A stretch of DNA of 53,267 bases from contig CAIMUF010000062.1 of NCBI GenBank assembly GCA_903844635.1, forward strand, positions 1 to 53,267, in the 5' to 3' direction. Position numbers and translations under genes: made by a program. Below the pieces are notes generated by a model, which searched no databases, was not told the origin of the DNA, and worked only from the letters and a program-made list of their open reading frames with translations. Source of the DNA: an uncultured Sulfuricurvum sp. (GTDB lineage: Bacteria > Campylobacterota > Campylobacteria > Campylobacterales > Sulfurimonadaceae). Below are positions 9,001 to 50,521 of the stretch, one piece after another (positions within the stretch are counted from its first letter, which is position 1; each line of letters opens with the position of its first letter).

Positions 9001-9003
9001 GCT

Positions 9004-9009: not shown

Positions 9010-9033
9010 AGAGAAAGGCACAAACAATCATTA

Positions 9034-10047: not shown

Positions 10048-10067
10048 AAACTATCGAAAAGCTTTTC
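10039..10067. terminator. Bidirectional terminator between HD-GYP gene and thiS
   Basis: TCGATA (10041-10046), loop AAAAC, TATCGA (10052-10057). The outer GC on the left can pair with GC on the right across a two-base bulge, and TTTTC follows. The hairpin spans the HD-GYP stop codon and separates the two convergent genes. Confidence 0.6.
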
Positions 10068-10272
10068 ACCCACCGCCAACAAAGTCAAGCAGTTCAATAA
10101 CATCACTATCGTTCAATACAGCACTGTTCCAGACATCTTTTTTCACAATCTGCATATTGACTGCCGCAGCCATTACTCGCTCTTCTAGACCCAAAGAATG
10201 GATTACATCAAACAGAGTTGAGTTTTCGCTTATCTCACGCATTTCACCGTTTACTTTTACTTTTACTTGCAT
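10066..10272 (-). CDS. thiS: Sulfur carrier protein ThiS
   Basis: A 68-residue ubiquitin-fold protein that carries the sulfur for the thiazole ring of thiamine as a C-terminal thiocarboxylate. It ends in the required Gly-Gly (DFVGGG). The start has AGGAAGTAGG directly upstream. It is the last gene of the minus-strand operon, 16 bases after the ankyrin gene. The other thiazole genes (thiG, thiF, thiH) are not nearby, so its position here looks incidental. Confidence 0.88.
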   Translation of the reverse strand: MQVKVKVNGEMREISENSTLFDVIHSLGLEERVMAAAVNMQIVKKDVWNSAVLNDSDVIELLDFVGGG

Positions 10273-10288
10273 CCTACTTCCTCATGCT

Positions 10289-10792: not shown

Positions 10793-10795
10793 TTT

Positions 10796-33570: not shown

Positions 33571-35214
33571 TTAGGCATTGTACATTTTTAAATAATACTC
33601 ATGCGCCATGCGTCCTGAATCAAATGCTGGAATAACATCCGACATGGCACTTTTCATAATCTGAGTCCAATGTTCAGGTTTATCATAGTACATTGGAATG
33701 ATCTCATTTTCAAGCATATCCATGAGATTTTTATTGTCTTCATAGTCTTGAACCTCGATCGGTGTCGTGTGGTCAATCGGAGGAATTGTGAATGAGTTTG
33801 AGCCATTTTTAGCAAATTCAGGATGCCATCCATCATCGGTTGAGAGATGGATTGATCCGTTCATACTTGCCGTCATTCCGCTTGTACCGCTCGCCTCTCT
33901 CGAAACTCTGGGCGTATTCAACCATAAGTCGGAACCTTTTTTTAGCATCGCTGATAATTCAAGTTCATATCCGACAAGTACTGCCATATTTTTAAAGCAA
34001 TGGCTGGTATGAATCAAGTCATTAAACGCATTGATAGCATTATTATCGAATGGATAAGGTTTACCGGCCCAAATAACTTGAATCGGTTTTTCAGTGCGTT
34101 CCAAAAGACGTTTAAAGCGTTCTAGATCGTGCTTTAGAAGTCCAGGGCGTTTGTATTCAGCAAAACGTCGAGCCCAGACAATGGTCAAAATATCCGGGTC
34201 AAACATTTTACCCGTCTGATCGGCAACAACATTGAACAACAGACGCTTCAAATGCTTTTTACGACCGACTAATGCATAATCCTCATGTTCATCGAGAGCA
34301 GATAGCATCCCTTTATCAGTCCAAAAACGACGATTTTGAGCATTAGTAATATAGGTAATCTCAGAGCGTCCTTCACACTGTTCCCACATCCGATTCGCTA
34401 CTGCACCATGAAACTTGGAAACGGCATTGGTCATCTTCGATGAGCGTAAGGCTCCGACAGTGAGATTAAAGGTTTCGTCATTTTCCATTTTCATAATCGT
34501 CCGCACGGTGTTTAAATCAAGACCGTTAAAGAACCCAAATTTGTGGAGTAAAAAGATACTGTGCTGCTCATTTCCAGAATCTTCAGGGGTATGGGTTGTA
34601 AAAGCTACCTTCTCTTTGACCTTTTCCATATCCTGATATTTTGCATACAGTTCGAAAGCCAAAGGAAGGGCATGACCCTCGTTCATATGATAAATATCAA
34701 TTTTTTGTTTTAAGGCTTCCAGTACTTTTACACCGCCAATTCCCAATACTATTTCTTGAGAAATACGAGTCTCTTCATTGCTATCATAAAGTTTATGGGT
34801 GATAGTTCGTGCTAAAAAATCGTTTTCAGGAATATCCGTTGAAAGCAAAATAAGAGGGGCAGATCCAAACACGCTGGGTGGAAGATAGAAAGCTTTAATA
34901 TGAACTTCTTGCGAGTGAATAGTGACCGTCGCCCGAACACCCAAATCTTCGAGAAAATAATAATGTTTACGGATAAATTCAGCTTTTAAATAACGCTTTT
35001 CAGTACGCAATTGATCGTAATAGCCAAAGCTCCATAAGATACCGACTCCCACTACATTTTGTCGCAGATCGTAAGCACTTCTCATATGGGAACCTGATAA
35101 GAATCCTAAACCGCCGGAATAAACTTTCAATGCCTGATGAATGGCAAATTCCATCGAAAAATAAGCGACGCTCGTGGAGTATTTCGAGTCAAACTCGTAA
35201 TCGTGTAAAATCAT
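33571..35214 (-). CDS. glgP: Short-form alpha-glucan phosphorylase family protein
   Basis: A 547-residue member of the alpha-glucan phosphorylase family (TIGR02094-like, short form), expected to release glucose-1-phosphate from glycogen. The N-terminal SMEFAIHQALKVYSGGLGFL, the middle WARRFAEYKRPGLL and the C-terminal EASGTSGMTASMNG are family landmarks. In the last motif, Thr448 stands where classical phosphorylases have the Lys that binds pyridoxal phosphate, so activity as a phosphorylase is uncertain. It is the last gene of the glycogen operon, six bases after pgi. Confidence 0.85.
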   Translation of the reverse strand: MILHDYEFDSKYSTSVAYFSMEFAIHQALKVYSGGLGFLSGSHMRSAYDLRQNVVGVGILWSFGYYDQLRTEKRYLKAEFIRKHYYFLEDLGVRATVTIHSQEVHIKAFYLPPSVFGSAPLILLSTDIPENDFLARTITHKLYDSNEETRISQEIVLGIGGVKVLEALKQKIDIYHMNEGHALPLAFELYAKYQDMEKVKEKVAFTTHTPEDSGNEQHSIFLLHKFGFFNGLDLNTVRTIMKMENDETFNLTVGALRSSKMTNAVSKFHGAVANRMWEQCEGRSEITYITNAQNRRFWTDKGMLSALDEHEDYALVGRKKHLKRLLFNVVADQTGKMFDPDILTIVWARRFAEYKRPGLLKHDLERFKRLLERTEKPIQVIWAGKPYPFDNNAINAFNDLIHTSHCFKNMAVLVGYELELSAMLKKGSDLWLNTPRVSREASGTSGMTASMNGSIHLSTDDGWHPEFAKNGSNSFTIPPIDHTTPIEVQDYEDNKNLMDMLENEIIPMYYDKPEHWTQIMKSAMSDVIPAFDSGRMAHEYYLKMYNA

Positions 35215-35220: not shown

Positions 35221-36468
35221 TCAGCTTTCAAATTTTTTGTACAAAATCTGCTTGCCCAGTTCAACTCCCGGTTGGTCGTAGGTGTGAATGTGCATCATCG
35301 CACCGACTAAAGAAGTTAGGAGTTCATAATACATGATAAGCGTACCGACATTTGCTTCATCACGCTTAGGAAACGTAATCTGATCCGTTGGAATACCGTT
35401 CATGTCCAAACTCTCTTTGGTCGCATCACATTGAAGGTTGATGAGGGTATTAAAGTTTTTGCTGTTAACAAAATCGGTCATTTCTAGATATTTTAAGGAA
35501 ATATTCGGGATAACGAGAGGCGTTTCAAAATCCTCAATCGTGAGAAAAGTGACCGTCTTATCCTTGGGTCCCTCAATGAGCAGCTGCAAAAATGAGTGCT
35601 GATCGACTGAACCGATCAACGAGGCAGGAGTTAACCCGACACTCTTGCCCGATGAGTCGATTTTACCCAAAGACTCTCCCCATAGCTGAACATACCATTT
35701 ACACAGATTTTCCAGTTCATTGGCGTAGGCAAAAATGACATTGATCGTTTTTTCGTGGCTGTTGAGGTAAAGATACGAAGCTTTTGTCAAAAGATGATCC
35801 TCTTTACGCTCAAAAAAGCGCTGTAAGAAACTTTCTGCTCCCTCAAGCAATGCTTTAGTATCGTATCCTGCCAATGTCAATGGAACGATTCCCACTGCAC
35901 TTAAAACTGAAAATCTTCCTCCGACGTTCTGAGGAATCGAAAACTGCGCAAGATCATAGTGATTACCGAATTTGGACAATGCCGAACCCTGATCGGTAAT
36001 GATAAGGATTCGTTCTTTATCACTGCCCTCTATCTCCAAACCAAAATGGGAAATAATCGTTTTAAAAATAGAGATGGTCTCTATCGTTGTTCCCGATTTT
36101 GAGATGATGATAAAAAGGGTATTCTCTTTTGTGAGCTTGCTCAATGTCTCTGAGATAATGATCGGATCGGTGTTCTCGAAAAAATGCAACGTTCGAAGGT
36201 TGGTTGCTTTTGATTTTAGCAACGAATCAATCCCTTTTGTCCCCAATGAAGAACCGCCGATTCCGACAATCGCAATATCCCGAATCTTCCCGGATGCAAA
36301 AATAGAGTTTTTTTGTTTAAAATCCTCAAGGCGCTCAATCAATCCGTCAGAATCTGAGGGCAATGCATAATAACCGACCTTTTGGCTATCACATTCTTCA
36401 CGAACACTTGCAAAAGCAGCTTCGTGGATAGGGGTTTGGTTCTTATCGAAATCGTGTTTAAAAATCAT
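35221..36468 (-). CDS. pgi: Glucose-6-phosphate isomerase
   Basis: A 415-residue enzyme that interconverts glucose-6-P and fructose-6-P. This is the short bacterial form (E. coli is about 550). The SIS domains show IVGIGGSSLGTKG, FIIISKSGTTIET, FSIPQNVGGRFSVLSAVG and a C-terminal catalytic region with QPGVELGKQ. The start overlaps the glgB stop codon (ATGA). It links glycogen breakdown and the Entner-Doudoroff genes with gluconeogenesis. Confidence 0.95.
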   Translation of the reverse strand: MIFKHDFDKNQTPIHEAAFASVREECDSQKVGYYALPSDSDGLIERLEDFKQKNSIFASGKIRDIAIVGIGGSSLGTKGIDSLLKSKATNLRTLHFFENTDPIIISETLSKLTKENTLFIIISKSGTTIETISIFKTIISHFGLEIEGSDKERILIITDQGSALSKFGNHYDLAQFSIPQNVGGRFSVLSAVGIVPLTLAGYDTKALLEGAESFLQRFFERKEDHLLTKASYLYLNSHEKTINVIFAYANELENLCKWYVQLWGESLGKIDSSGKSVGLTPASLIGSVDQHSFLQLLIEGPKDKTVTFLTIEDFETPLVIPNISLKYLEMTDFVNSKNFNTLINLQCDATKESLDMNGIPTDQITFPKRDEANVGTLIMYYELLTSLVGAMMHIHTYDQPGVELGKQILYKKFES

Positions 36469-38399
36469 AGTTTCTCCTGCGATATATGTTTGATGTAAAG
36501 TACCCCTAGAGGGGGAAGTGTTAGTGTAATTGTAAACTCTCGTGCGTGTGTAGATTCTGAAACCGCCTCAATTGGTAAGCTATTTTCGATATTCCACCCT
36601 TCGTACATAGAGGACTGGGAGTTAAAAATCTCAACATACTCACCAGCGTCCAAGACACCCATTTTATAATTTTCACGTGTTGCATCGGCAAAGTTGCACA
36701 CCACATAGATTTTTTCTGAAGGGTTTGTGCTTTTTCGGACAAAACTGATGCAGTTATGAGTGAAATCTTGATCATCAATCCACTCAAATCCTTCACGCTT
36801 TTCATCCAACTGATGTAAGGCAGGTTCGTTCGTGTAGAGTCGATTCAAATCAGAGACCATCTTTTTCAACCCTGCATGAAGTGGATTTTCCAAGATGTGC
36901 CAGTCTAAAGAGCGCTCAAAATTCCATTCCGAATATTGGGCAATTTCACCCCCCATAAAGAGAAGTTTTTTACCAGGATGCGCCATCATATACCCATACA
37001 ACGAGCGTAAATGAGCAAATTTTTGGTTGGTGTCTCCCGGCATTTTGTTGATCAGGGAACCTTTCATGTGGACGACCTCATCGTGACTTAGAGGAAGCAT
37101 GAAATTCTCATCAAAACCATACCACATGCTAAAAGTCAGCTGTGCATGGTGGTGCTGTCGGTGAATCGGATCAAAACTCATGTATTTGAGAGAATCGTGC
37201 ATCCATCCCATATTCCATTTAAATCCAAATCCCAAACCGCCGACATCGACTGGACGAGTGACCATCGGATAAGCGGTCGATTCTTCGGCAATCATCAAGA
37301 TGTCAGAAAATTCTCCATAAAGACTGGTATTGAGTTTTTTCAAGAATTCTACGGCTTCGAGATTGATGTCGCCACCGTCTTTGTTGGGTATCCACTCCCC
37401 TTCTTTACGGGCATAGTTGAGATAGAGCATCGACGCGACTGCATCGACACGAATCCCGTCAATATGGTATTTGTCCACCCAAAACATCGCTGAGCTTATA
37501 AGAAACGACTGGACTTCGTTGCGCCCGTAGTTGAAAATGATGCTCCCCCACTCCGGATGATACCCCTGACGCGGATCGTCATGCTCATACAGTGCGGTTC
37601 CATCAAAGTTGATAAGTCCGTGCATATCGACTGCAAAATGCGACGGAACCCAGTCCATAATCACCCCGATAGCGTTTTCATGAAGCGTACTGATGAGATA
37701 CATCAAATCTTGCGGTGTTCCAAAACGGGATGTTGCGGCAAAATAGCCCACAACCTGATATCCCCATGAACCGAAAAACGGGTATTCGGTGAGAGGCATA
37801 AACTCGACATGGGTGTAATTCATCTCAATCAGATATGCAACCAGTTCTACGGCAAGCTCACGGTAGGTTAAAAAGCGCTCACCCTCTTCTACGTTTCGTC
37901 TCCATGAACCCACGTGCATCTCATAGACACTGATGGGAGCATCATGGGCATTGTTGACATGACGATTTTGCATCCATTTACTATCGTCCCATCTGTAATC
38001 CTCTAAGCTCCATACTCTTGAAGCCGATTTTGGCGGTAATTCAGCAAAGAATCCAAACGGATCACTTTTATCATGGATGATATTATGAAACTGCGAGACG
38101 ATGTGATATTTGTAGGTGATTCCCTGCTCTACGCCCTCAATAAACCCTTCCCAAATCCCTGATTCATCGGGACGTAAAACGAGAGGATGGGTAAGTGTAT
38201 CGTAGTCATTAAAATCTCCCCGCACACTGACACTCGCTGCATTGGGTGCCCAGACTGCGAAATAAACTCCTGATTTCCCCTCATGTATCATCGCATGAGA
38301 GCCTAGTTTATCGTAAAGCTTGGTATGAGTGCCTTGCTTGAAGAGATAGATATCCATCTCACTCAAACGCGAAATATCATAGCGTATCGGATGATTCAT
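36465..38399 (-). CDS. glgB: 1,4-alpha-glucan branching enzyme
   Basis: A 644-residue GH13 enzyme that makes the alpha-1,6 branches of glycogen. An N-terminal CBM48 domain (VYFAVWAPNAASVSVRGDFN) precedes the catalytic barrel with GVIMDWVPSHF, GIRVDAVASMLY (nucleophile Asp), MIAEESTAYP (acid/base Glu) and LPLSHDEVVH (transition-state Asp). The C-terminal all-beta domain is complete. The start overlaps the glgA stop codon by four bases. Confidence 0.96.
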   Translation of the reverse strand: MNHPIRYDISRLSEMDIYLFKQGTHTKLYDKLGSHAMIHEGKSGVYFAVWAPNAASVSVRGDFNDYDTLTHPLVLRPDESGIWEGFIEGVEQGITYKYHIVSQFHNIIHDKSDPFGFFAELPPKSASRVWSLEDYRWDDSKWMQNRHVNNAHDAPISVYEMHVGSWRRNVEEGERFLTYRELAVELVAYLIEMNYTHVEFMPLTEYPFFGSWGYQVVGYFAATSRFGTPQDLMYLISTLHENAIGVIMDWVPSHFAVDMHGLINFDGTALYEHDDPRQGYHPEWGSIIFNYGRNEVQSFLISSAMFWVDKYHIDGIRVDAVASMLYLNYARKEGEWIPNKDGGDINLEAVEFLKKLNTSLYGEFSDILMIAEESTAYPMVTRPVDVGGLGFGFKWNMGWMHDSLKYMSFDPIHRQHHHAQLTFSMWYGFDENFMLPLSHDEVVHMKGSLINKMPGDTNQKFAHLRSLYGYMMAHPGKKLLFMGGEIAQYSEWNFERSLDWHILENPLHAGLKKMVSDLNRLYTNEPALHQLDEKREGFEWIDDQDFTHNCISFVRKSTNPSEKIYVVCNFADATRENYKMGVLDAGEYVEIFNSQSSMYEGWNIENSLPIEAVSESTHAREFTITLTLPPLGVLYIKHISQEKL

Positions 38400-39865
38400 C
38401 CTTTTCTCCCCTCTTTGATGGTGTAATAAAGGGCTTCATACTCGCGTCCTGCAACGTCCCAGTCAAACCGTCGGCTCATTGCATTGTGCTGCATCTGTCT
38501 AAATCCGTTGGGGTCATTGTACCATGTATGAACTGCCCATCCAACGGTATTGATAAGCGCGTCAGCCGTAGCGTCGTAAAATTTAAACCCTGTACCGTTG
38601 GATGAGTCATTTTGGTAGTTTTCAATCGTATCATCCAGTCCACCCGTTGCCCGAACGATGGGAAGCGTTCCATAACGAAGAGAGTAAATTTGATTCAACC
38701 CGCATGGTTCAAAGAGTGACGGCATCAAAAACAAATCGGATGCCGCTTCGATTTGATGAGCGAGATCGTTTCGATAGCCGATGAAACAGCTGAATTTGTC
38801 CGGATAGATTGCTGCGATGTGACTAAAAAAGGATTCTGCCCATTTTTCTCCCGCACCCAGCATGACGATTTGAATGTCCATTTCCAACAGTTTATGGATC
38901 GAGGCTGAAAGCAAGGCAATCCCTTTTTGTTCGGCTAAACGCCCAACGAGACCTATGAGGGGAACTTCAGGCCTTTGGGAAAGATGAAATGTCTCTTGCA
39001 AAGCACGTTTGCACAAAACCTTACCGCTCATATCCTCGACATCAAAATGGTTAGGAATAAACGGATCGATTGCAGGACTCCATTCGTCGTAATCAACTCC
39101 GTTTAGTATCCCATGTAATTTGTAAGAGTACTTACCGATGAGTCCCTCTAAACCCCATCCAAATTCCGCCGTGCAAATCTCTTGGGCATATTTACGGCTT
39201 ACGGTGCTGACTGCATCGGCGTGGACGATTCCCCCTTTGAGAAGGTTGACGCTGCCGTTGTCTTCAAGATCGTAAAAATGTTCCCAGCCAATGGCGAGTA
39301 CGTCCATCACCCCTTTATAAAACTTGCCTTGATGCTGGAGATTATGGATGGTAAGCAGCGTTCCTGTAGCGCTGAAATCTCTATCATGCTTATACAACGT
39401 GTTGAGCATTACGGGAATTGCGGCTGTATGCCAATCGTTGGCATGAATCACGTCGGGATGAAAATGAAGTTTCTTTGACAGTTGCATCACGGCACGTGAA
39501 AAGAAGATAAATCGATTATCGTTGTCTGCGAACCCTTCTCCGTTTGTATCATACAGGTCACTGCGACCAAAATACTCTTCATAGTCGATGAAATACACGG
39601 GGATGTCGGTTTGCGGCAAAAGTCCTTCATACACTCCTGCCCACAACTCTCCCATCACTCCCATCGGAACTCCAAGAGAGCCTTCCAGTCGTTTTAAACC
39701 GTATTTTTCACGATCAACGAGATAGTAGCGAGGCATGACTAAACGTACATCATGCCCAAGTGCGCGAAGTGCTTTAGGAAGAGCCCCGGCGACATCGGCT
39801 AGACCGCCAGTTTTGGCAAAAGGGACAATCTCAGAGGCAGCGATCAGAATATTCAGTTTAGACAT
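38396..39865 (-). CDS. glgA: Glycogen synthase (first of two GT5 copies)
   Basis: A 489-residue GT5 enzyme that adds glucose from a nucleotide sugar to glycogen. The N-terminal KTGGLADVAGALPKAL binds the donor, HANDWHTA and TIHNLQHQG follow, and the C-terminal half has GLVGRLAEQKG and the EPCGLNQIYSLRYG motif with its catalytic Glu. It overlaps the second synthase gene by 13 bases. The two copies are clearly diverged from each other, so this is an old duplication or two separate acquisitions. Confidence 0.94.
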   Translation of the reverse strand: MSKLNILIAASEIVPFAKTGGLADVAGALPKALRALGHDVRLVMPRYYLVDREKYGLKRLEGSLGVPMGVMGELWAGVYEGLLPQTDIPVYFIDYEEYFGRSDLYDTNGEGFADNDNRFIFFSRAVMQLSKKLHFHPDVIHANDWHTAAIPVMLNTLYKHDRDFSATGTLLTIHNLQHQGKFYKGVMDVLAIGWEHFYDLEDNGSVNLLKGGIVHADAVSTVSRKYAQEICTAEFGWGLEGLIGKYSYKLHGILNGVDYDEWSPAIDPFIPNHFDVEDMSGKVLCKRALQETFHLSQRPEVPLIGLVGRLAEQKGIALLSASIHKLLEMDIQIVMLGAGEKWAESFFSHIAAIYPDKFSCFIGYRNDLAHQIEAASDLFLMPSLFEPCGLNQIYSLRYGTLPIVRATGGLDDTIENYQNDSSNGTGFKFYDATADALINTVGWAVHTWYNDPNGFRQMQHNAMSRRFDWDVAGREYEALYYTIKEGRKG

Positions 39866-41292
39866 TTTTTTCCTTCTTTTATGAGGGTTTCATAGAGTGC
39901 ACCATACGCTTTTGCACTCTCGGACCATGAAAAATCACACTGCATATTATGAGCGACCAACAGTTCAAAACGCTTTTTATCGGCATACAAATCGAGCCCT
40001 TTTCGTACTGCCAACAAAAGTGATCGAGGCGTTGGTGTATTAAAAACGACTCCATACCCTTCACGGCTTTTAGGATCAAACGATTCAAATTTTTTAACGG
40101 TATCCGCCAATCCGCCTACACGATGGACAAGAGGAACTGCCCCGTAGCTAAACGCGATCATTTGATTGAGGCCACAAGGTTCAAACAGGGAGGGCATCAA
40201 TAAAAAATCTGCCGCAGCATACAATCGATGGGAAAACGATTCATCGTATCCGTAGGTCAAATGAAGATTGGGATAATACTGTTCTAATTTCCGTAGACGA
40301 TCATAATATCCCTCTTCCCCTTCCCCTAAAAGAGCGATAGTGCACTCTAACTCTGCCATCTTTGGAAGGGTTTCGATGAGGAGATCCATCCCTTTTTGAC
40401 TGACAAAACGACCGATAAAAGCAAAAAGAGGTTTGGATGTCCCTTTTAGTCCCAACTCTTTTAGCAGAGCATTTTTATTGATTTTTTTGCCCTTTGGCTC
40501 GTTATAAACGACATTCAATGCGGTATCGTGTGCAGGTGAAAAATGCTCATGATCGATTCCATTGATGATCCCTGAAAGTTTTGTGCGATGAAGCTGTAAA
40601 AAACCTTCTAATCCGCATCCAAACTCAGGAGTCATAATCTCTTTTGCGTACGTTGAGCTCACAGTGGTAATGCAATCTGAGTAAGCAATTCCCGCTTTCA
40701 TCAAGTTTATTTGTCCATAAAACTCGATCTCATTCATCCTAAAATGCGATTGATTAATCCCTAAATCATCCATATAAACAGGGTCAAAAACACCCTGATA
40801 GGCTAAGTTATGAATCGTGTAAAGAGATTTGGTGGAGAGAGTCGGATCATCGTGCATAAGCAATGCCGTCAATGCACACTGCCAGTCGTTAAGATGGACA
40901 ATGTCATAGTGATCATCTCTTAACAATGTGTAGATCGTATGGCTGAAGAGTCCAAAGCGTAACGCATTATCCTCATATCCAGCTTCCGGTGTACCGTAGA
41001 GAAACTCTCTGTCACACAGCATTGGATGGTACACAAAACGATATTTTACCCCCTCATGCGTACATCCGTACATCTCAATTCGATATTGGGTCTCTCCCAT
41101 CAATACGTCAAAAAAGCAATCTTCTGAGACAATGTTGTATTTATCCCGATCAACCGATTGATACAGAGGCATAATGACCTCAATATCATACGCATTGAGC
41201 GCACGAGGCAAAGCGTGTGCCACATCTGCCAAACCGCCTGTTTTAGCAAAAGGATAGACTTCACTCGCAGCGAACAGCACTTTTTTAGACAT
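39853..41292 (-). CDS. glgA: Glycogen synthase (second GT5 copy)
   Basis: A 479-residue GT5 glycogen/starch synthase. The donor-binding KTGGLADVAHALPRAL, HLNDWQCALTALLMHD, TIHNLAYQG, FIGRFVSQKG and EPCGLNQMIAFSYG motifs are intact. It differs from its neighbour mainly in the middle and at the loops (no long insert after HPMLCD), so the two may prefer different donors or chain lengths. It overlaps galT by eight bases at its start. Confidence 0.93.
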   Translation of the reverse strand: MSKKVLFAASEVYPFAKTGGLADVAHALPRALNAYDIEVIMPLYQSVDRDKYNIVSEDCFFDVLMGETQYRIEMYGCTHEGVKYRFVYHPMLCDREFLYGTPEAGYEDNALRFGLFSHTIYTLLRDDHYDIVHLNDWQCALTALLMHDDPTLSTKSLYTIHNLAYQGVFDPVYMDDLGINQSHFRMNEIEFYGQINLMKAGIAYSDCITTVSSTYAKEIMTPEFGCGLEGFLQLHRTKLSGIINGIDHEHFSPAHDTALNVVYNEPKGKKINKNALLKELGLKGTSKPLFAFIGRFVSQKGMDLLIETLPKMAELECTIALLGEGEEGYYDRLRKLEQYYPNLHLTYGYDESFSHRLYAAADFLLMPSLFEPCGLNQMIAFSYGAVPLVHRVGGLADTVKKFESFDPKSREGYGVVFNTPTPRSLLLAVRKGLDLYADKKRFELLVAHNMQCDFSWSESAKAYGALYETLIKEGKKCLN

Positions 41293-42292
41293 AATTTTCC
41301 CCTCGCAAAACTTTGGCCGCCAATTCGGGTTCCATCGGATTAATCATCATGTCGGTATTCGTCTCAAATCCGCCAAACCGATACAGTCGCGGAAGAATGC
41401 GAATGTAAAATGGATACAGATTGCTTCGCTCTCTGTCTTCGTGCAACGGCGGTGTCGATACCCATAGATTCAACGCCATGTTGTTCATTTGAATATTCAA
41501 ACGCTGCATCACCGACATAAGCAAAGTGGAGAGGGCTTCGATTCTCTCGTTGGTAAGCGCGTCGATTGATTCCATCCTCTGCGATGAAGCGATCATCACC
41601 TCAAAGGGATAATTGCTGGCATAAGGACAAAATGCACTAAATTCTCCTACTCGCTGGATGATTCGAACCTCAGCATCTTCTTCATCTTTTACGATTGATT
41701 CCATCAAGGGATGATGATGAGTTTCGAAATAGTCACGGCTTCGCTGATACACGTCACGCTGTGCTTTTGGGATCAAAGGAAGCGCGATGAGCTGTGTATG
41801 ACAATGGCTCATGGTTGAACCTGCATCATACCCCTCATTTTTAAAGAGAGAAATAGAAGCCAAACGATGATCGCGTCTAAGATCTTCCACTCGTGCTCTG
41901 AGTGTTTTGAGCCATGCTACACACTCCTCATGACTCCACTGACTCATCGAAACATGATGTTGCGGTGTATCGATGATCACTTCATGCGCCCCAAAACCTT
42001 CCCACGACTCAAACGTCCCGAAATTATGCTGATGGGGAGCTTCGATCGCGACGGCTTTATAGAGATTGGGGACAACGCGAGTATTCCATCCTGGTTGATT
42101 TGCCCACGAATCATCGTGACGCATTGCAAAGATCTCTTTGGGAGTCATGGCTTCATTTCCCTCACAAAAAGGGCATGCTACAAGCTGTGTATCCTCTCCT
42201 ATAGGAGTCATATCCGGTCGGTGCAGCCGTTCTGGCGCGATGAGGACATGGTTATCGTTCAAACGATCGTATCGGATTTCAGACACGCTCAA
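41285..42292 (-). CDS. galT: GalT-like hexose-1-phosphate nucleotidylyltransferase
   Basis: A 335-residue HIT-superfamily enzyme of the galactose-1-phosphate uridylyltransferase family. Zinc ligands Cys40 and Cys43 (ACPFC) and the active-site H-x-H-x-Q are visible as H163-C-H165-T-Q167. No galK, galE or galM is in the window. In this glycogen setting it may instead handle glucose-1-phosphate and a nucleotide sugar, as known for the related ADP-glucose phosphorylase; this is inference. It overlaps the GH57 gene by 14 bases. Confidence 0.85.
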   Translation of the reverse strand: MSVSEIRYDRLNDNHVLIAPERLHRPDMTPIGEDTQLVACPFCEGNEAMTPKEIFAMRHDDSWANQPGWNTRVVPNLYKAVAIEAPHQHNFGTFESWEGFGAHEVIIDTPQHHVSMSQWSHEECVAWLKTLRARVEDLRRDHRLASISLFKNEGYDAGSTMSHCHTQLIALPLIPKAQRDVYQRSRDYFETHHHPLMESIVKDEEDAEVRIIQRVGEFSAFCPYASNYPFEVMIASSQRMESIDALTNERIEALSTLLMSVMQRLNIQMNNMALNLWVSTPPLHEDRERSNLYPFYIRILPRLYRFGGFETNTDMMINPMEPELAAKVLRGENYV

Positions 42293-44309
42293 TCTCCAAA
42301 ATTCCGCTTAGATCCAACACCGTATCAAAAGCAAAGACCAAAGCTAAACTCACACCCTGAACACTCAGATCAAAGCCCTGCTCGCTTTGAGAAAGCGTTT
42401 GGAGTTGAAAATAGTGAACTTTACAGGGCTTATCGGTACGGATGATGATTTTTTTCTTTAAATACAGGTCTTCCATCTCGATCATCTGAGTCTCTTTAAT
42501 CGTCCCTATCTGCGCTAAATCGACACCATTAATCCGAATCTTTTCATAATCTGCAAAGTGAAAATTGTGTTCCATCACATAGGTAAAGTCACCTTTGGCA
42601 TCACTTTTGAGATGAAGAGAAAATTCGATTGCACTGGAAGCAAAGGTAAAATTTTTCTCCAACGAAGCATTGGCTTTTTCATCGTTGTAGATTCCTCCTT
42701 CACGTGTAAAGGCAATACTGTTTTTGGTTTGGGAAGATTCAAAAGGCTGATTGGCAAAATCTCCATATTCCCGAAAATTGCAATGACGAAAATTCTCTGC
42801 ATTAAACCCAGAGTCACTGATATGATCGACAAAGGAGTTTTTCAAATACCAATCATAAATAATCGCATCTCTTAACGTATCGTCAACCGCAACATTGGCA
42901 TGATGGATCGTATCGATCCCCTCTTCAAACGGTATTGATTTTTCTTTTGGAGCTTCAAACAATTTAGCGTGATACGCTTCTTTTCTCCGTGTCAGGGTGT
43001 TTTGATAGTTAAAACAGCAATCTCTCAAATCGAGTTCCACCAACTGTCCACCGCAAGCTGAATCAAAACGGGAGATGAGCTTGGACGTCACCGATTTGTA
43101 TTTCGCATGTCCGTCAAGCTCGTTGGAATCACTCACGAGAGCTTTCTTTTTCCCATAACGGATATTTTCACACTCAATCAAATAACGATAGCCGTTGTCG
43201 CGCAGATTCGGGAGATACAGTCCTCCAAAAACACCATGCCAGAGCGAATCGTTGGTTTGTGCTTTGTACAAAGCGGTCTCAAAATCCCCTTCACCCGCAT
43301 GAAAGGCACGGGAAAGTTCCATTGTCCGCTTGTGCAGGCGATTGGATTCCGGGTATTTGACGAAGAAATTCTTCCAAATTCCCCCTTTGAGAAACTTAAC
43401 CCCGTATTCCTCATACCGCTGTAATCCCATTTCCTCTTTGAGCGCTTCAAGATGCAGAGCATCATCCGCCCTTAGACTCCATTCCCCCATCTCGTAATAC
43501 GAGACATTCGGTAAATAGGCAATACCGCGCGGACGATGGGCATCAAAATACTCACCGAAATGACGTGTCTGAATCGACTCATCAGCCAATACGCCTTGAA
43601 CAAACGACTCAAGCCACCCTTTTTCATACACCCATTCATGCGTACCCGGCCACATCCCGAATTTTTCGGCATCATCAAAAATAATTGCGGCTGAATCTTC
43701 TTCGCGGTTGTAAGATTTTATCGCTTTAATCGCACTTTCTACATTCAAAAACGGAATGGCGTATCGGAGTTTTTGACTGATAGGAAACAGTCCCATAGGC
43801 GTTCCGCCCTCTTCACTCATGTAGTAGCCATCTAACCCCGTAGCATCAAAACCAGCGCACTGAAAATGGTAATCGTCCATCACGGTATATTTTATCCCCG
43901 CACGATCAAGATCTGGGATCAGTGAGGATTCCCAAACCCGTTCGGTCAGCCATAAACCTTTGGGAGTTTGACCAAAACGGGTGTGTATTGAATCGTTTAG
44001 CCGTTGGATTTGTCCTACGCGGTCAGCGGAGGGAATAACGCTCAAAATCGGTTCATAATAGCCTGCACTGAAAAACTCGATGCTTCCTGCTTTAGCCAAG
44101 GTGACAATTTTTTCATAGAGTGACGGTCTCAATTCCTCGATCCGCTCCATAAGCCATCCGCTGCAATGAACGGAGAATTTAAAATCAGGATAGCGGCTCA
44201 TCACCTCGAAAAAAGGTTCGTAGCAGGTTTTTATCCCCAGTTCGATTACCCACTCGAGATTGTCCACCGGCTGGTGCATGTGGATACCCAATAGTAATGA
44301 TGTTTTCAT
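42279..44309 (-). CDS. GH57 4-alpha-glucanotransferase / alpha-amylase
   Basis: A 676-residue GH57 enzyme with a catalytic (beta/alpha)7 barrel and C-terminal DUF1925/DUF1926-type beta domains. Conserved motifs are GIHMHQPVDN, the nucleophile Glu123 in GLWLTERVW, and the acid/base Asp213 in DDAEKFG. Both positions match the numbering recalled for the Thermococcus litoralis 4-alpha-glucanotransferase (Glu123, Asp214). It probably transfers maltooligosaccharides to reshape glycogen chains. No signal peptide, so cytoplasmic. It lies eight bases from the second GH57 gene. Confidence 0.9.
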   Translation of the reverse strand: MKTSLLLGIHMHQPVDNLEWVIELGIKTCYEPFFEVMSRYPDFKFSVHCSGWLMERIEELRPSLYEKIVTLAKAGSIEFFSAGYYEPILSVIPSADRVGQIQRLNDSIHTRFGQTPKGLWLTERVWESSLIPDLDRAGIKYTVMDDYHFQCAGFDATGLDGYYMSEEGGTPMGLFPISQKLRYAIPFLNVESAIKAIKSYNREEDSAAIIFDDAEKFGMWPGTHEWVYEKGWLESFVQGVLADESIQTRHFGEYFDAHRPRGIAYLPNVSYYEMGEWSLRADDALHLEALKEEMGLQRYEEYGVKFLKGGIWKNFFVKYPESNRLHKRTMELSRAFHAGEGDFETALYKAQTNDSLWHGVFGGLYLPNLRDNGYRYLIECENIRYGKKKALVSDSNELDGHAKYKSVTSKLISRFDSACGGQLVELDLRDCCFNYQNTLTRRKEAYHAKLFEAPKEKSIPFEEGIDTIHHANVAVDDTLRDAIIYDWYLKNSFVDHISDSGFNAENFRHCNFREYGDFANQPFESSQTKNSIAFTREGGIYNDEKANASLEKNFTFASSAIEFSLHLKSDAKGDFTYVMEHNFHFADYEKIRINGVDLAQIGTIKETQMIEMEDLYLKKKIIIRTDKPCKVHYFQLQTLSQSEQGFDLSVQGVSLALVFAFDTVLDLSGILEIERV

Positions 44310-44317: not shown

Positions 44318-46309
44318 CTATATAAACCAGTCGGTTGTAAAATAATTATTTAGTTCCAATAAAAGTGTTCCATTGCCCGGTAAAGTTTGAAGCACCTGCT
44401 TCTCTTCTAGCACTTCCCACCGAAGATGGACAACAGTGTTGCTTCCAAAATGAGCTCGTGAGAGTGAAAATTCCAACCGGTGGTTGAAAATAACTGGCTC
44501 CAATACTAGACGTTCACCCGTCTCTTCGATCACCATCTCGATATACGTATGCAGCGAGAAAGGGCTTTTGCCTTCCAAGGCGATATAAACGGTTTGATCG
44601 TCCAATCCATAATAGATGGTATCGACAGGACCACGCAACCTGTCCATCGTTGAAAAGCTCTGCGTCTCATCGATCATGCCGCATCCGGTCCATTCAAAAA
44701 AGCCTCTTTTTCCTCCGCCTAAACGCGGTGAAATACTATTGCGAGGCTTGATCCAAGAGGGTTTTGCGACATGAAAAGAGTTAATCGGTTCCCTAAAATG
44801 CGAGGGAACCGTTTTTTCCATCAAACGATAGATCTCGATCAGATGGTCTCGAAACAAGGTATCAAACTCAGATGAAAACTCCGTCACGTGATCTTCACCG
44901 TACCACCAAAACCAGTCACTGCACTGCGATGCCAGAAGATGATACCGTATCGTTTCGGTGACTTCATGGGTTTGGGCATAGCGTTCTACCTCACGGCGTG
45001 TTTCAAAAATAAGTTCCCATGCCCGATTTTTTTCACGATGTCCTACCCATGTATCAAAGGTTCCGTGTATCCAGCTGCCAGGAGCCAAGTGTTCTAACAC
45101 TTCACTCTCATTGTTTTGCGACACCTCATCCATACTTGCCGTTTTACACCATGTTGATGTGCTCAAAGCGCTATACAAAGAGGTAAAGAAATCCCATCCG
45201 TTATTCGGGTAAAACTCCCATGCATTCTCGCCGTCGACAATCACAAAAACATGCGGATTTTCTTCATTGGAAGCGATACGATGCAGTTCATCCATAAAAT
45301 GGCTGCTCGCCTTTTTTCCTTCCATATGACGATACTCAAATCCGATCAGATCACTCAAACCATGATCACGAAAAGCGATGGTCACATCCTCATAACGATA
45401 GGGTTTATAACGCAGAGATGACGCATCGCTGTGGAGCGATTTATGAAGTATCGCCTCGTCGGTCGCAATCCATGAAATGCCATGCTCTTTGTAAATAGCA
45501 AGACTTTTTTCATCAACAGCTCCCTCCGCCGGCCAAAAACCGCTGGGCTTGGTTCCAAATGTCGCTTCATACAGTTCGATGGAACGCTTAACATGTTCAA
45601 TCGCATCATCACGCAGTGAATATGCACCCTCTGGTAACTCAGTTGCGCCATTGGCACGCTGTCCATTTTCCATGTCGATTAACAAAGGAAGGATCGGATG
45701 AAAATAAGGAGTCGTTGAAACCGATATGGTTCCCTCTTTTTGCAGTCTTCCGTAAAAAGGAAGTATCTCCGAAACAAAAAGGGACAACGTTTCCAGTAAC
45801 GCGGTTTTGTCCTCTTGGGTGTACCCTCGCTGTTTGATAAACAACGCTTTGACCAAATCATTATGAAGACGAAGAGTATTTCCGCACCATGCGAGCAAAA
45901 ACACCACTTCCAAATCGATCAGCTCATCATCACTAAAAAGCGTCTGCTCGTAAAGTTCACAATAGCGTACTATGGGGCGTACCATGGTGTCATACTGCGT
46001 CGTAGTACACAGTTTTATGAGCCATTCTTGTTGCGATTGGCTAAGCTTTGCGGGGTCTTGTGCCCACAGGGAAAGAAAATAATCGTATTTCAGAGGCTGT
46101 GTGTAAAGTTTGAGCTGTTCGATTAACGACGCACTGAGGTTGAACGTGGCTTTGAGCCCCGGATACTGACTCATAAGCCACGGCATCTCATAATAATCTT
46201 TAATGGCGTGTAAAAATACCCATGGCATACTCATCACACCATCGCTGCCCCTGTAATCAGGCTGATGCATGTGCCAAAAAAACGAAAGGCTAAGGCTTCG
46301 ATCATTCAT
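44318..46309 (-). CDS. GH57 glycoside hydrolase, alpha-amylase type
   Basis: A 663-residue GH57 protein. FFWHMHQPDYRG is motif 1, GFWPAEGAVDE holds the likely nucleophile Glu262, and VIVDGENAWEFYPNNG holds the acid/base Asp. The C-terminal part (about 480-663) is a beta-rich domain. The ATG at 46309 overlaps the preceding stop as TGATG, typical of coupling in this operon; a GTG five codons upstream is an alternative. It is probably a cytoplasmic alpha-amylase or debranching-type enzyme acting on glycogen. Confidence 0.88.
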   Translation of the reverse strand: MNDRSLSLSFFWHMHQPDYRGSDGVMSMPWVFLHAIKDYYEMPWLMSQYPGLKATFNLSASLIEQLKLYTQPLKYDYFLSLWAQDPAKLSQSQQEWLIKLCTTTQYDTMVRPIVRYCELYEQTLFSDDELIDLEVVFLLAWCGNTLRLHNDLVKALFIKQRGYTQEDKTALLETLSLFVSEILPFYGRLQKEGTISVSTTPYFHPILPLLIDMENGQRANGATELPEGAYSLRDDAIEHVKRSIELYEATFGTKPSGFWPAEGAVDEKSLAIYKEHGISWIATDEAILHKSLHSDASSLRYKPYRYEDVTIAFRDHGLSDLIGFEYRHMEGKKASSHFMDELHRIASNEENPHVFVIVDGENAWEFYPNNGWDFFTSLYSALSTSTWCKTASMDEVSQNNESEVLEHLAPGSWIHGTFDTWVGHREKNRAWELIFETRREVERYAQTHEVTETIRYHLLASQCSDWFWWYGEDHVTEFSSEFDTLFRDHLIEIYRLMEKTVPSHFREPINSFHVAKPSWIKPRNSISPRLGGGKRGFFEWTGCGMIDETQSFSTMDRLRGPVDTIYYGLDDQTVYIALEGKSPFSLHTYIEMVIEETGERLVLEPVIFNHRLEFSLSRAHFGSNTVVHLRWEVLEEKQVLQTLPGNGTLLLELNNYFTTDWFI

Positions 46310-48816
46310 CAAGGCTTCGACCACTCCTGTATTTTTTCCGTGTAGCGCTTGGTATACATTTCCCCTTTTTCATCGTCTGTTGCTTGGATTGTCAGATTGA
46401 GATAATCGCTGTATTGATCCGGAATCATTAATACCCAATCATCTTTATCCAGCCAAATTTTGACCCCATCAAGCGTCGACGATTCTTTATCTTTGGCATC
46501 TTCCAAAAATTTGCGCATCATTTTTCCCTTCAGGGACTGAGTACACGGAAGCTGAATCGTTGTATAGAAAAAATGAGGCAATGAGTCAATAATTTCAGAA
46601 AGTTTCACACTGTGAGACACCATCATCTCCAAAATTTTCAACGTCGCATACATCGAATCTCTGTGTGTCGCAAATTCGGTAAAGGTAAAGTTCCCCTCCC
46701 CTGTAGCGACCAAGTCATAACTTTTCATCTTAGAGGCTTTAAAATTCGCGTACTGACCCCGTTCAATCTCAAGATGGTCAAAATAGACAATGTCCGCAGC
46801 CCACGTCGGTAAAAAGACTCGCTTTTTAACCCCGCTGGCTTTGGCCTCCATGTTCAAAAGACTCATAACAACATACAACGCGCTTTGCTTGGAAAGAGGA
46901 AGCCCCTCATCGCACACAATATCCAATCGCTGACCATGAGGATAGAGGATAAATCCTCCATCAAGTTTGAGCGCTTTAATCACTGCCCCCATATCCTCAT
47001 ACGAGCGTTTCACCAACGTATTAATGTTCGAGAGACGCTGTTCGTCGCTATAAGCATTGAACATAATATGTTCAACCCCAAGATCGTTCAAAATATCAGG
47101 GAAAACCTCAGCCGCCAAACCGTGCGTCAAATCAACAGCAATACGGCAATCAAGACATTTAAACCGATGCGATTGCAAAACAGTCTCTATCCCTTTTTTG
47201 TATTCGGCATATTCACGCTTGTGGTCGAGTTCGTGGATCTGTCCGATTTGGGAATAATCGACTCGACGAAAAGTTTCTTTGAAAAATGCTTTTTCTACCT
47301 TTTTTGCCACATCATTATTGATACGAAGTGCTTCATGGTTGTAAAAAGTAATGACCGTACTGGTGGGATCATCGATTTTTTGATGAAAATGAACCCCTGC
47401 CGTATAGTGCTCGTGGAAGGAGAGACTGCATCGCATAACGGCCGAGGGGATAGCATTATAATCGACAACATCGACTCCCGAAGAGAGCAGACCGCCTAAA
47501 AATGCCCGTTTCAGCATCCGTGAGCTTTTATCATAATGCCGTGATACTAGCACCGTCGAACCTACAGGTAACTGCGCACCAAAAGATTCTGCTATCTTCG
47601 TCGCCATTTCGCATGAAAGTTCCACGTTTGATTTCCCGATGACCATTCCGTTTTCAAAAATAGAATTTTTATATTTACTTCCCAGAATGACACTGCGGCT
47701 GACGATAGAAGCATCTTCAATCATTTTATACGGCCAAATGGTGACATCTTTTTCGATGGTGACCAGCTCACCAATTTCGCATCCCTCGGCTAAAATTAAT
47801 CCCGATTTAGCGGTAACATTTTTTCCGATACTGTTCCCGTCACAAATAACGCACCCGTCTAGTTTGGCATTTTTTCCGATTTCAACATCATTCCAAATAA
47901 CGGTATTGGCAATCTTCGAAGAAGAGCCGATAACAACATTATTTCCTATCACGACATTGCTAAGCTTCGAACCGCGTTTAACCGTCACATTTTTACCGAT
48001 TACGACGATTCCGATGACTTCAACACTCTCATCGAGAGTGTTGTCCTCTTCACAAATGAGAACACCATCAGGATATTTAATGGCTTCTCCCCCAATATTG
48101 AGTTTGATTTTACCGGCAAGTATGTCTTCATACACATCCCGATAACTCTCTGGATTGCCGACATCACGCCAATATCCTTGGGCATATCCTGCCATTAAAT
48201 CGATTCCTTGACGCATCAAATGAGGGAAAAGATCTTTGGCAAAATCAAAATTTTCATTTTTAGGGATGTACTCAAGAATTTCAGGCTCGATGATATAAAT
48301 ACCGGTGTTAATGGTGTCGCTAAATACCTCTCCCCAACTCGGTTTTTCGAGGAATTTTTCGATTTTTCCCTCTTCATTGGCAATGACCACCCCAAACTCG
48401 AGCGGGTTTTCAACCGAAGTCAACGTTATGGTTAATTTAGAATTTTTTGATTTGTGATAGTCAAAAATCTGCTGAAAATCAAAATCGGTTACCAAATCAC
48501 CGCTGATAATGATGAAGTTTTCATTGCCGATGTATTCCTGCGCTTTTTTAACCGCACCCGCTGTCCCGTAATCATCATCAGGGACAACATAGGTAATGTT
48601 GATTCCCCAAGCACTTCCGTCTTGGAAATAATCCTTAATGACATCGGGTTTAAAATAGAGTAATACAATAAATTCTTTAATGCCTAAATCTCGTAGGCTT
48701 ACAATCGTATGTTCCATCATCGGACGGTTCATTATCGGTAACATAGGCTTTGGGACAGAATTCGTCAGGGGCTGTATTCGTGTTCCAAATCCGCCTGCCA
48801 TAACAACAGCTTTCAT
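46309..48816 (-). CDS. Sugar-phosphate nucleotidyltransferase fused to a degenerate phosphohexomutase domain
   Basis: An 835-residue protein. Residues 1-235 are a nucleotidyltransferase (MAGGFGTRIQPLTNSVPKPM, SGDLVTDFD), 250-385 a left-handed beta-helix of hexapeptide repeats, and 400-835 a phosphoglucomutase/phosphomannomutase fold. The mutase part lacks the Ser-His-Asn loop (HFHQKID near 476-482), the D-x-D-x-D metal site (YPHGQRLD near 625-632) and the phosphate-binding RPSGTEP-like loop (IPDQYSD near 798). Family members are annotated as mannose-1-phosphate guanylyltransferases; a donor-making role for GlgA is possible. It is the first gene of the operon, with AAGGAG four bases before the ATG. 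Confidence 0.88.
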   Translation of the reverse strand: MKAVVMAGGFGTRIQPLTNSVPKPMLPIMNRPMMEHTIVSLRDLGIKEFIVLLYFKPDVIKDYFQDGSAWGINITYVVPDDDYGTAGAVKKAQEYIGNENFIIISGDLVTDFDFQQIFDYHKSKNSKLTITLTSVENPLEFGVVIANEEGKIEKFLEKPSWGEVFSDTINTGIYIIEPEILEYIPKNENFDFAKDLFPHLMRQGIDLMAGYAQGYWRDVGNPESYRDVYEDILAGKIKLNIGGEAIKYPDGVLICEEDNTLDESVEVIGIVVIGKNVTVKRGSKLSNVVIGNNVVIGSSSKIANTVIWNDVEIGKNAKLDGCVICDGNSIGKNVTAKSGLILAEGCEIGELVTIEKDVTIWPYKMIEDASIVSRSVILGSKYKNSIFENGMVIGKSNVELSCEMATKIAESFGAQLPVGSTVLVSRHYDKSSRMLKRAFLGGLLSSGVDVVDYNAIPSAVMRCSLSFHEHYTAGVHFHQKIDDPTSTVITFYNHEALRINNDVAKKVEKAFFKETFRRVDYSQIGQIHELDHKREYAEYKKGIETVLQSHRFKCLDCRIAVDLTHGLAAEVFPDILNDLGVEHIMFNAYSDEQRLSNINTLVKRSYEDMGAVIKALKLDGGFILYPHGQRLDIVCDEGLPLSKQSALYVVMSLLNMEAKASGVKKRVFLPTWAADIVYFDHLEIERGQYANFKASKMKSYDLVATGEGNFTFTEFATHRDSMYATLKILEMMVSHSVKLSEIIDSLPHFFYTTIQLPCTQSLKGKMMRKFLEDAKDKESSTLDGVKIWLDKDDWVLMIPDQYSDYLNLTIQATDDEKGEMYTKRYTEKIQEWSKP

Positions 48817-49057: not shown

Positions 49058-50521
49058 ATGAGTGAAATATCCAATTTATGCGACGTTATTATTTTCGGAG
49101 GGCATGGTGATTTAGCGTTTCGAAAGCTCATGCCTGCGTTGTATCATCTTTGTAATGACGGACACATTAACGAGCACAGCCGTATTTTTTCAACCACCCG
49201 TGCCAATATGACCCAAGAAGAGCACCTTGAACTGGTCAAAACAAAATTAAAAGAGTTTTTAGCCCAAGGGCAATTTGATGAGACAAAATTTGAGAATTTT
49301 AAAGCACGGCTTCATCTGGTTAAAGTGGATTTGGGTAATGTTGAAAGTTACGAGGAACTTAGCCTCTTGCTTGGAGAAAATCCACAACGAGAGCGCATCA
49401 GCTATCTCTCTACCTCTCCTGATTTTTTCGGAACGATTTGTAAAGCATTAAGCACATGGAGACTTGTCAGCCCTCAAAGTCGTGTCGTTTTGGAAAAACC
49501 GATCGGGCGGGATCTTGTCTCTTCACGTGCCATCAATGTGGAAGTACTAAAATATTTCGAAGAATCCCAAGTCTATCGTATCGACCACTATTTAGGGAAA
49601 GACACCGTTCAAAACATTATGGCGCTGCGTTTTTCCAACCGTATTTTCACCCCGTTGTGGGATGCGAGCAACATCGACCATGTTGAAATCACCGTCTCTG
49701 AGAGTGTCGGGGTTGAAGGGCGCTGGGGCTATTACGATGAGTACGGTGCGATGCGCGACATGATTCAAAATCATCTGATGCAGCTGCTGTGCCTCATCGC
49801 TATGGAACCTCCGTGTTCTTTGGATGCGGACAGTGTACGGGATGAAAAAGTTAAAGTGCTCAAATCCCTGCGCCCTATGAGTGCTGCGGATATCCAGCAA
49901 AAAACCGTTCGCGCCCAATACACAAAAGGCTCCAGTAACGGTCAAATCGTCCCCGGGTACAAAGAGGGTGAAGGGGTTGCAAACAGTACGACTGAAACCT
50001 ATGCAGCCGTTCGTGTAGACATCGACAACTGGCGCTGGAACGGTGTACCGTTTTATCTGCGAAGCGGTAAACGCCTGCGCAACAGAAACTCTGAAATCAT
50101 TATTCAGTTCAAATCGATCCCCTACTCTATTTTTGCCAACAAAGGGAGCTGTATTTCGCAAAACAAACTGGTCATCTCTTTACAGCCCAGAGAGAGTATC
50201 CAGCTCAAACTCATGAATAAAATTCCCGGACTCAGTGAACAGATGCGTCTGCAACAAGTCGATTTGGAACTCAATTCCCCTACTAATGAGGAGCGTAAGC
50301 CTGAAGCCTATGAGAGACTGATGCTCGATGTTATCCGCAGTAATCCGACACTGTTTATGCGTCTGGATGAAGTGGAAGCGGCGTGGAAATGGGCGGATAT
50401 TATTTTACAAGGATGGGCAGAAAACATTGTTCCGATGAAAAGCTACAGTGCAGGAACCGATGGCCCAACAGCAGCAGTCGAACTGATCGCACGAGATGGC
50501 AGAAGCTGGCATGATGAATAA
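49058..50521 (+). CDS. zwf: Glucose-6-phosphate 1-dehydrogenase
   Basis: A 487-residue enzyme that oxidises glucose-6-P to 6-phosphogluconolactone with NAD(P)+. The N-terminal dinucleotide motif is FGGHGDLAFRKL, EKPIGRDL follows, and the substrate-binding and catalytic RIDHYLGKDTVQN has the catalytic His region. The length is standard. It is the first gene of the Entner-Doudoroff operon. Its end overlaps the pgl start (ATGATGAATAA). Confidence 0.96.
   Translation: MSEISNLCDVIIFGGHGDLAFRKLMPALYHLCNDGHINEHSRIFSTTRANMTQEEHLELVKTKLKEFLAQGQFDETKFENFKARLHLVKVDLGNVESYEELSLLLGENPQRERISYLSTSPDFFGTICKALSTWRLVSPQSRVVLEKPIGRDLVSSRAINVEVLKYFEESQVYRIDHYLGKDTVQNIMALRFSNRIFTPLWDASNIDHVEITVSESVGVEGRWGYYDEYGAMRDMIQNHLMQLLCLIAMEPPCSLDADSVRDEKVKVLKSLRPMSAADIQQKTVRAQYTKGSSNGQIVPGYKEGEGVANSTTETYAAVRVDIDNWRWNGVPFYLRSGKRLRNRNSEIIIQFKSIPYSIFANKGSCISQNKLVISLQPRESIQLKLMNKIPGLSEQMRLQQVDLELNSPTNEERKPEAYERLMLDVIRSNPTLFMRLDEVEAAWKWADIILQGWAENIVPMKSYSAGTDGPTAAVELIARDGRSWHDE

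What the first reader, a model, noticed from the sequence alone, without database searches (positions are those of the whole stretch)
46309..48816. Phosphohexomutase domain that has lost all three catalytic motifs
The C-terminal 430 residues keep the mutase fold by sequence pattern, but the phosphoserine loop, the D-x-D-x-D metal site and the phosphate-binding loop are all replaced. A pseudoenzyme domain attached to an apparently intact nucleotidyltransferase may sense hexose phosphates and control donor synthesis. Related fusion proteins are known from other phyla under the name mannose-1-phosphate guanylyltransferase.
Basis: partly seen in the sequence, partly recalled or inferred. Interest (0 to 1): 0.6.

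Follow-up and report, generated by a model that had tools for sequence, protein, structure and literature searches.

The report
Glycogen-operon nucleotidyltransferase with dead mutase domain
The gene encodes a sugar-nucleotide-making enzyme fused to a dead sugar-phosphate mutase; it heads a glycogen operon and is probably the missing enzyme that makes the glucose donor for glycogen in these bacteria, which lack the textbook enzyme for that step.

Summary
Observation confirmed; the gene is on the MINUS strand (46309-48816, 835 aa). An apparently intact nucleotidyltransferase and left-handed beta-helix (1-~370) are followed by a complete phosphohexomutase fold (383-835; Z 39.9 to T. kodakarensis phosphoglucomutase). 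The phosphoserine loop, D-x-D-x-D metal loop and phosphate loop are all replaced. None of 57 family members examined keeps the metal or phosphate loop, although 15 keep a Ser at the nucleophile column, so the dead domain is an old family trait, not decay in this strain.

Context takes the finding further. The gene heads a glycogen operon (two GH57, an ADP-glucose-phosphorylase-like GalT, two GlgA, GlgB, Pgi, a glucan phosphorylase). No GlgC was found in the genome or in any of 298 Campylobacterota genomes. The fusion and GlgA occur in exactly the same 44 of 298; GalU is separate in 43 of those 44. Aquificota agree only in part. In Bacillota the fusion again sits among alpha-glucan genes.

Best reading: a GlgC-replacing NDP-glucose (probably ADP-glucose) pyrophosphorylase with a non-catalytic, probably regulatory or structural, mutase domain. 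Nucleotide specificity and the domain's ligand, if any, are untested.

The parts
46309..48816 (-). gene for the 835-aa nucleotidyltransferase / pseudo-phosphohexomutase fusion (stop codon 46309-46311)
   Evidence: ORF and translation; Pfam
48118..48816 (-). NTP_transferase domain, residues 1-233; GGFGTR 8-13, PKPM 22-25, D107, EKP 157-159, D218; most of these residues invariant in 48 sequences
   Evidence: closest solved chain 8x7s
47707..48099 (-). left-handed beta-helix, residues 240-370 (hexapeptide repeats)
46312..47670 (-). pseudo-phosphohexomutase domain, residues 383-835
47365..47403 (-). replaced phosphoserine loop, TAGVHFHQKIDDP (472-484)
46903..46965 (-). replaced metal loop, LDGGFILYPHGQRLDIVCDEG (618-638)
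46651..46710 (-). replaced sugar-binding loop, VATGEGNFTFTEFATHRDSM (703-722); D720 kept in 57 of 57
46393..46437 (-). replaced phosphate loop, WVLMIPDQYSDYLNL (794-808); P799 invariant in 48 of 48
44318..46324 (-). GH57 protein, overlaps the fusion gene's end
42279..44309 (-). GH57 alpha-amylase/4-alpha-glucanotransferase
41285..42292 (-). GalT-like protein, nearest solved relative At5g18200 (1z84; an ADP-glucose phosphorylase per PMC6329318)
39853..41292 (-). glycogen synthase GlgA (first copy)
   Evidence: TIGR02095 504 bits, cut-off 328
38396..39865 (-). glycogen synthase GlgA (second copy)
   Evidence: TIGR02095 530 bits
36465..38399 (-). branching enzyme GlgB
35221..36468 (-). glucose-6-phosphate isomerase Pgi
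33571..35214 (-). alpha-glucan phosphorylase
   Evidence: TIGR02094 442 bits

Best explanation
The protein is the NDP-glucose (most likely ADP-glucose) pyrophosphorylase of a GlgC-less glycogen pathway. Its N-terminal domain joins glucose-1-phosphate to a nucleotide, and GlgA uses the product. Its C-terminal domain is a phosphohexomutase that has lost catalysis and now serves as a fixed, non-catalytic part of the enzyme, most likely for regulation and/or assembly. Shown: the domain layout, mutase fold (by model), loss of catalytic motifs across the family, place in the glycogen operon, one-to-one co-occurrence with GlgA in Campylobacterota, absence of GlgC. Inferred: that the sugar is glucose, that the nucleotide is ATP, and any regulatory role.
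For: Own genome: no GlgC; the best TIGR02091 match is this protein at 139 bits, cut-off 425. 298 Campylobacterota genomes: GlgC 0 of 298 (the same search rings in 7 of 14 control genomes), fusion 44 of 298, GlgA 44 of 298, the same 44, with a GlgA within 9.6 kb in 35 of 44 and on another contig in 9. The set cuts across genera: in genus g2 at least 9 genomes have both and 8 have neither. GalU is a separate gene in 43 of the 44. Of 33 loci at 59-100% identity, 28 have the same GH57 gene next downstream, one has GlgB there, and in four the contig ends. In Bacillota at about 32% identity, 7 of 10 loci have GH57 genes downstream, and in L045 and L049 a GT4/GT5-type glycosyltransferase lies next to it. 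The operon's GalT-like protein is nearest to an ADP-glucose phosphorylase. Motif loss. Fold.
Against: The nearest solved nucleotidyltransferases are a UDP-glucose type (8x7s, named UTP--glucose-1-phosphate uridylyltransferase) and GDP-mannose types, so ATP use is not readable from sequence. In Aquificota 35 GlgA genomes have neither fusion nor GlgC, so absence of GlgC alone does not point to the fusion. Ten loci labelled KSB1, Ignavibacteria, Kapaibacterium or Bacteroidetes show no glycogen gene next to it, and one KSB1 genome also holds GlgC-like genes. S. kujiense carries a copy on a plasmid away from glycogen genes. No biochemical or genetic data.
Confidence: 0.66

Rival explanations
1. Same place in the pathway, but the nucleotide is UTP or GTP: the enzyme makes UDP- or GDP-glucose and the GlgAs accept it.
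For: Closest solved nucleotidyltransferases are UDP-glucose (8x7s) and GDP-mannose types. Other bacteria make glycogen from UDP-glucose (P. aeruginosa, Aeromonas: passages of PMC11046441); S. venezuelae makes GDP-glucose with a homologue of mycobacterial ManB (passages of PMC5247666).
Against: GalU already supplies UDP-glucose in 43 of 44 fusion genomes; both GlgAs score over the 'ADP-glucose type' cut-off; ADP-glucose-phosphorylase-like neighbour.
Confidence: 0.25
2. GDP-mannose pyrophosphorylase, as a ManC-like label would suggest.
For: Best curated nucleotidyltransferase model is the mycobacterial mannose-1-phosphate guanylyltransferase.
Against: Score far below that model's cut-off (262 vs 440); glycogen operon; co-occurrence with GlgA. 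A further 479-aa NTP_transferase frame on C52 looks by length like ManC, but that name is from recall.
Confidence: 0.07
3. The C-terminal domain is purely structural: an oligomerisation or scaffold module with no ligand (a rival only for the domain's role, not for the enzyme's place in the pathway).
For: All catalytic loops replaced, the phosphate-binding Arg gone in 57 of 57; the domain varies much more than the nucleotidyltransferase half (11 of 451 vs 63 of 233 invariant positions).
Against: The replacement of the phosphate loop is itself conserved (P799 in 48 of 48; Asp in 50 and Glu in 5 of 57 at the Ser column), and G764/R768 are invariant, which suggests a selected function there.
Confidence: 0.35
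4. The mutase domain is still active through other residues (bifunctional enzyme: glucose-6-phosphate to glucose-1-phosphate to NDP-glucose).
For: Complete fold; phosphoglucomutase is the preceding step of the pathway; Ser kept at the nucleophile column in 15 of 57 relatives.
Against: In this protein Ser is Lys; no member keeps the three metal Asp residues or the phosphate Arg. The genome has two mutases with intact motifs.
Confidence: 0.03

Closest known systems
GlgC, ADP-glucose pyrophosphorylase (TIGR02091)
   Same: nucleotidyltransferase plus beta-helix; supplies the glycogen donor (inferred here)
   Different: 139 bits against a cut-off of 425; carries a 450-residue mutase-fold domain that GlgC lacks
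tlr0611 UDP-glucose pyrophosphorylase (8x7s; the family name CugP is recalled) and GMPPB/VTC1 GDP-mannose pyrophosphorylases
   Same: N-terminal half, residues 1-372; 8x7s Z 31.2 over 341 residues, 29% identity
   Different: no mutase domain
Archaeal PGM/PMM (9du5, 1wqa, 2f7l)
   Same: fold over 383-835, Z 38-40
   Different: all catalytic loops replaced here
GlgD of Bacillota, GMPPA (regulatory pseudo-subunits)
   Same: a catalytically dead relative attached to a sugar nucleotidyltransferase (GlgD: passages of PMC9093745; GMPPA as regulator recalled)
   Different: those are dead nucleotidyltransferases in separate chains; here a dead mutase is fused in the same chain
PGM5/aciculin (6y8x)
   Same: phosphoglucomutase-fold protein without mutase activity (recalled); matched by fold
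   Different: eukaryotic, not fused, different role

Membership tests
GlgC ADP-glucose pyrophosphorylase | score over the TIGR02091 cut-off (424.9 bits) | tested here: not met
   139.3-139.4 bits
GlgC ADP-glucose pyrophosphorylase | located with glycogen synthesis genes | tested here: met
GlgC ADP-glucose pyrophosphorylase | ATP + glucose-1-phosphate activity | not testable with these tools
   needs an enzyme assay
Mannose-1-phosphate guanylyltransferase (Rv3264c type) | score over the NF052502 cut-off (440 bits) | tested here: not met
   262.3 bits
Sugar-1-phosphate nucleotidyltransferase superfamily (PF00483) | domain over gathering with G-rich loop, PKP, metal Asp and EKP conserved | tested here: met
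   188.4 bits; invariant residues G8 G9 G11 R13 P22 K23 P24 D107 E157 K158 P159 D218; which residues are catalytic is recalled
alpha-D-phosphohexomutase superfamily (fold) | mutase fold over the domain | tested here: met
   PF02878/79/80 over gathering; Z 39.9 to 9du5
active alpha-D-phosphohexomutase | phosphoserine loop, DxDxD metal loop, sugar loop, RxSGT phosphate loop | tested here: not met
GlgD-type regulatory pseudo-subunit | separate, dead nucleotidyltransferase chain | tested here: not met
   the dead domain is a mutase fold within the same chain

The most novel reading that the evidence does not exclude
The dead mutase domain is a built-in allosteric sensor: its old substrate cleft binds a sugar phosphate or another small metabolite and switches ADP-glucose synthesis on or off, replacing the allosteric site that GlgC carries between its catalytic and beta-helix domains. 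This would be a second, independent design of a regulated glycogen donor enzyme in chemolithoautotrophic bacteria.
Probability: 0.3. Interest if true: 0.75.

Novelty: new variant of a known kind. Interest (0 to 1): 0.57.

Why it matters
It offers a candidate for a missing step: how Campylobacterota that carry GlgA make the glucose donor although none of 298 sampled genomes has GlgC. It also gives a clear case of a metabolic enzyme kept as a dead domain on the enzyme of the next pathway step, in Campylobacterota, Aquificota, Bacillota, Actinomycetota and Bacteroidota/Ignavibacteria-type genomes. If confirmed, many 'sugar phosphate nucleotidyltransferase' or mannose-1-phosphate-type labels should be changed.

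Tried and rejected
Bifunctional active mutase: rejected on motif loss in two alignments. Strain-specific decay: rejected, the motifs are lost in all 57 members examined, and in the 53 full-length loci used the frame runs on for 799-842 residues. GDP-mannose enzyme: see rivals.

dN/dS by domain gave little: synonymous sites are saturated (median pS 0.75) and only 2 pairs qualified for the mutase half, so no selection claim is made from it. Neighbours of the Ignavibacteria/Bacteroidetes-type copies (L038, L040) gave no functional lead. Whether S. venezuelae SVEN_3972 or SVEN_2781 is a fusion could not be read from the passages seen of PMC5247666. Mapping conserved residues onto the model was not done, since no coordinates were laid for scripts. 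The first L003 match (8001-8282) is a short piece in front of a full copy (8600-11101); the full copy was left out of my alignments because I started at the short piece.

Literature: ten full-text searches listed, as far as titles and abstract starts show, no paper on this fusion or on a GlgC substitute in Campylobacterota; subscription journals are mostly not held. Of the papers named I saw only passages found by search terms, no whole text. PMC3958643 (one passage) notes a vent-specific glycogen gene cluster in Epsilonproteobacteria without naming the donor enzyme in that passage.

Full report
Observation. The ORF at 46309-48816 is on the minus strand and encodes 835 residues. Pfam finds NTP_transferase (2-233), beta-helix repeats (256-354) and three PGM_PMM domains (392-517, 538-637, 695-747), each over its gathering score. 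An AlphaFold2 model built on 48 family members (the window protein and 47 of the 53 full-length loci; mean pLDDT 81.7, most of the mutase half at about 85-95, pTM 0.64) superposes the last 450 residues on solved mutases, best 9du5 with Z 39.9, rmsd 2.6, 437 residues, and the first 370 on nucleotidyltransferases such as 8x7s (Z 31.2, 341 residues, 29% identity). The relative placing of the two halves is not reliable at this pTM.

Motif loss. Two independent alignments agree (MAFFT with the genome's own GlmM and PMM; phmmer against T. kodakarensis PGM). The phosphoserine loop is GVHFHQKIDD with Lys at the Ser position; the metal loop DGDADR is YPHGQR; the sugar loop GEQSGH is TGEGNF; the phosphate loop RxSGTE is IPDQYSD. 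Over 57 mutase halves (53 of the 58 loci, the stand-alone paralogue, and three plasmid-collection copies; five loci were dropped as truncated, without a mutase half, or wrongly started) the Ser column is K in 22, S in 15, other in 20; the second and third metal Asp are each kept in one sequence, and none keeps all three; the phosphate Arg is kept in none; one Asp (D720) is kept in all. The phosphate-loop replacement is conserved in its own right: P799 is invariant in 48 of 48, and the old Ser column is Asp in 50 and Glu in 5 of 57.

Surroundings. The gene is the first of a run of overlapping or closely spaced minus-strand genes: fusion, GH57, GH57 glucanotransferase, GalT-like, GlgA, GlgA, GlgB, Pgi, alpha-glucan phosphorylase. 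Divergently, from a 241-base gap, runs an operon that by sequence looks like zwf-pgl-edd (these three names are from recall, not from a family search). The GalT-like protein is below the cut-off of true GalT models (92 of 448 bits; 77 of 102) and nearest among solved structures to Arabidopsis At5g18200 (1z84) over nearly its full length (E 2.4e-42; that 1z84 is At5g18200 is recalled), which reviews describe as an ADP-glucose phosphorylase (passages of PMC6329318 and PMC11066809).

The missing enzyme. A GlgC search of the own genome (96% complete) returns nothing over the cut-off; this protein is the best hit. Across 298 Campylobacterota genomes GlgC is found in none at E 1e-60, while the same search finds it in 7 of 14 control genomes. 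The fusion (E 1e-100) is in 44 of 298, GlgA in 44 of 298, and the two sets are identical; the nearest GlgA lies within 9.6 kb in 35 of 44 and on another contig in the remaining 9. Shared descent makes the nominal Fisher p (1e-53) an overstatement, but the pair comes and goes together even within genus g2 (at least 9 with both, 8 with neither in the rows shown). GalU is a separate gene in 43 of the 44, so UDP-glucose does not need the fusion.

Other phyla, results for and against. I searched the genomes of 25 more distant loci; 24 hold the fusion and one (L057) only a 361-aa nucleotidyltransferase. Of the 24 fusion genomes 23 lack GlgC at E 1e-50 and one (KSB1, L037) has three GlgC-like genes; 10 of 24 have GlgA. 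In 136 Aquificota genomes the fusion is in 23, GlgA in 57, GlgC in none; 22 of 23 fusion genomes have GlgA, but 35 GlgA genomes lack the fusion, so another donor enzyme must serve there. In Bacillota at about 32% identity, 7 of 10 loci have GH57 genes downstream, and in L045 and L049 the fusion follows a glycosyltransferase nearest to TIGR02149 glgA_Coryne, below its cut-off; L045 also has a GH57 branching enzyme. Ten KSB1/Ignavibacteria/Kapaibacterium/Bacteroidetes loci show no linked glycogen gene. S. kujiense has a plasmid copy beside phospholipase genes. Streptomyces and Nonomuraea have about 30%-identical fusions with the same motif losses.

Mechanism. The most economical account: the first half makes NDP-glucose for GlgA, in place of GlgC. 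ADP-glucose is favoured over UDP-glucose because GalU is present, the GlgAs pass the ADP-glucose-type model, and an ADP-glucose-phosphorylase-like gene sits in the operon; the sequence itself does not settle it. The mutase half cannot catalyse by the known mechanism. That a dead copy of the preceding enzyme of the pathway is fused to this step suggests it was first a bifunctional enzyme and was later kept for regulation or assembly; that history and role are inference. Precedents for dead relatives tuning such enzymes exist (GlgD: passages of PMC9093745; GMPPA: recalled).

Verdict. A real and old pseudoenzyme fusion, more likely tied to glucan than to mannose metabolism. The new point is its tie to glycogen synthesis without GlgC. 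It is a new variant of a known kind (sugar nucleotidyltransferase with a regulatory or structural add-on), testable with simple assays.

Noticed in passing
L078:7879-9357 (own genome, contig C44): A 492-aa stand-alone pseudo-mutase without a nucleotidyltransferase, 44% identical to residues 349-834 of the fusion, lying between signalling genes and a rhodanese-like gene; none of the other 297 Campylobacterota genomes shows such a second hit at E 1e-100.
   Followed up: partly
window 41285-42292: GalT-like gene in the glycogen operon is closest to an ADP-glucose phosphorylase, suggesting the operon can also break down ADP-glucose.
   Followed up: partly
window 38396-41292: Two different GlgA genes in tandem; 15 of 15 fusion genomes of the own family have two, as do some of other families, the rest one.
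   Followed up: no
L079:12035-14572 (S. kujiense pSULKU01): A plasmid copy of the fusion next to phospholipase genes, away from glycogen genes.
   Followed up: no
window 49058-53020: An operon that looks like zwf-pgl-edd (Entner-Doudoroff; names recalled) diverges from the glycogen operon across a 241-base gap.
   Followed up: no
Aquificota genomes: 35 genomes have GlgA but neither GlgC nor the fusion, so a third donor enzyme is likely there.
   Followed up: no
L003:8001-8282: A short N-terminal piece of the fusion gene stands in front of a full copy.
   Followed up: no
L037:4885-7208: A second, 26%-identical relative of the fusion lies upstream of the first in a KSB1 genome.
   Followed up: no
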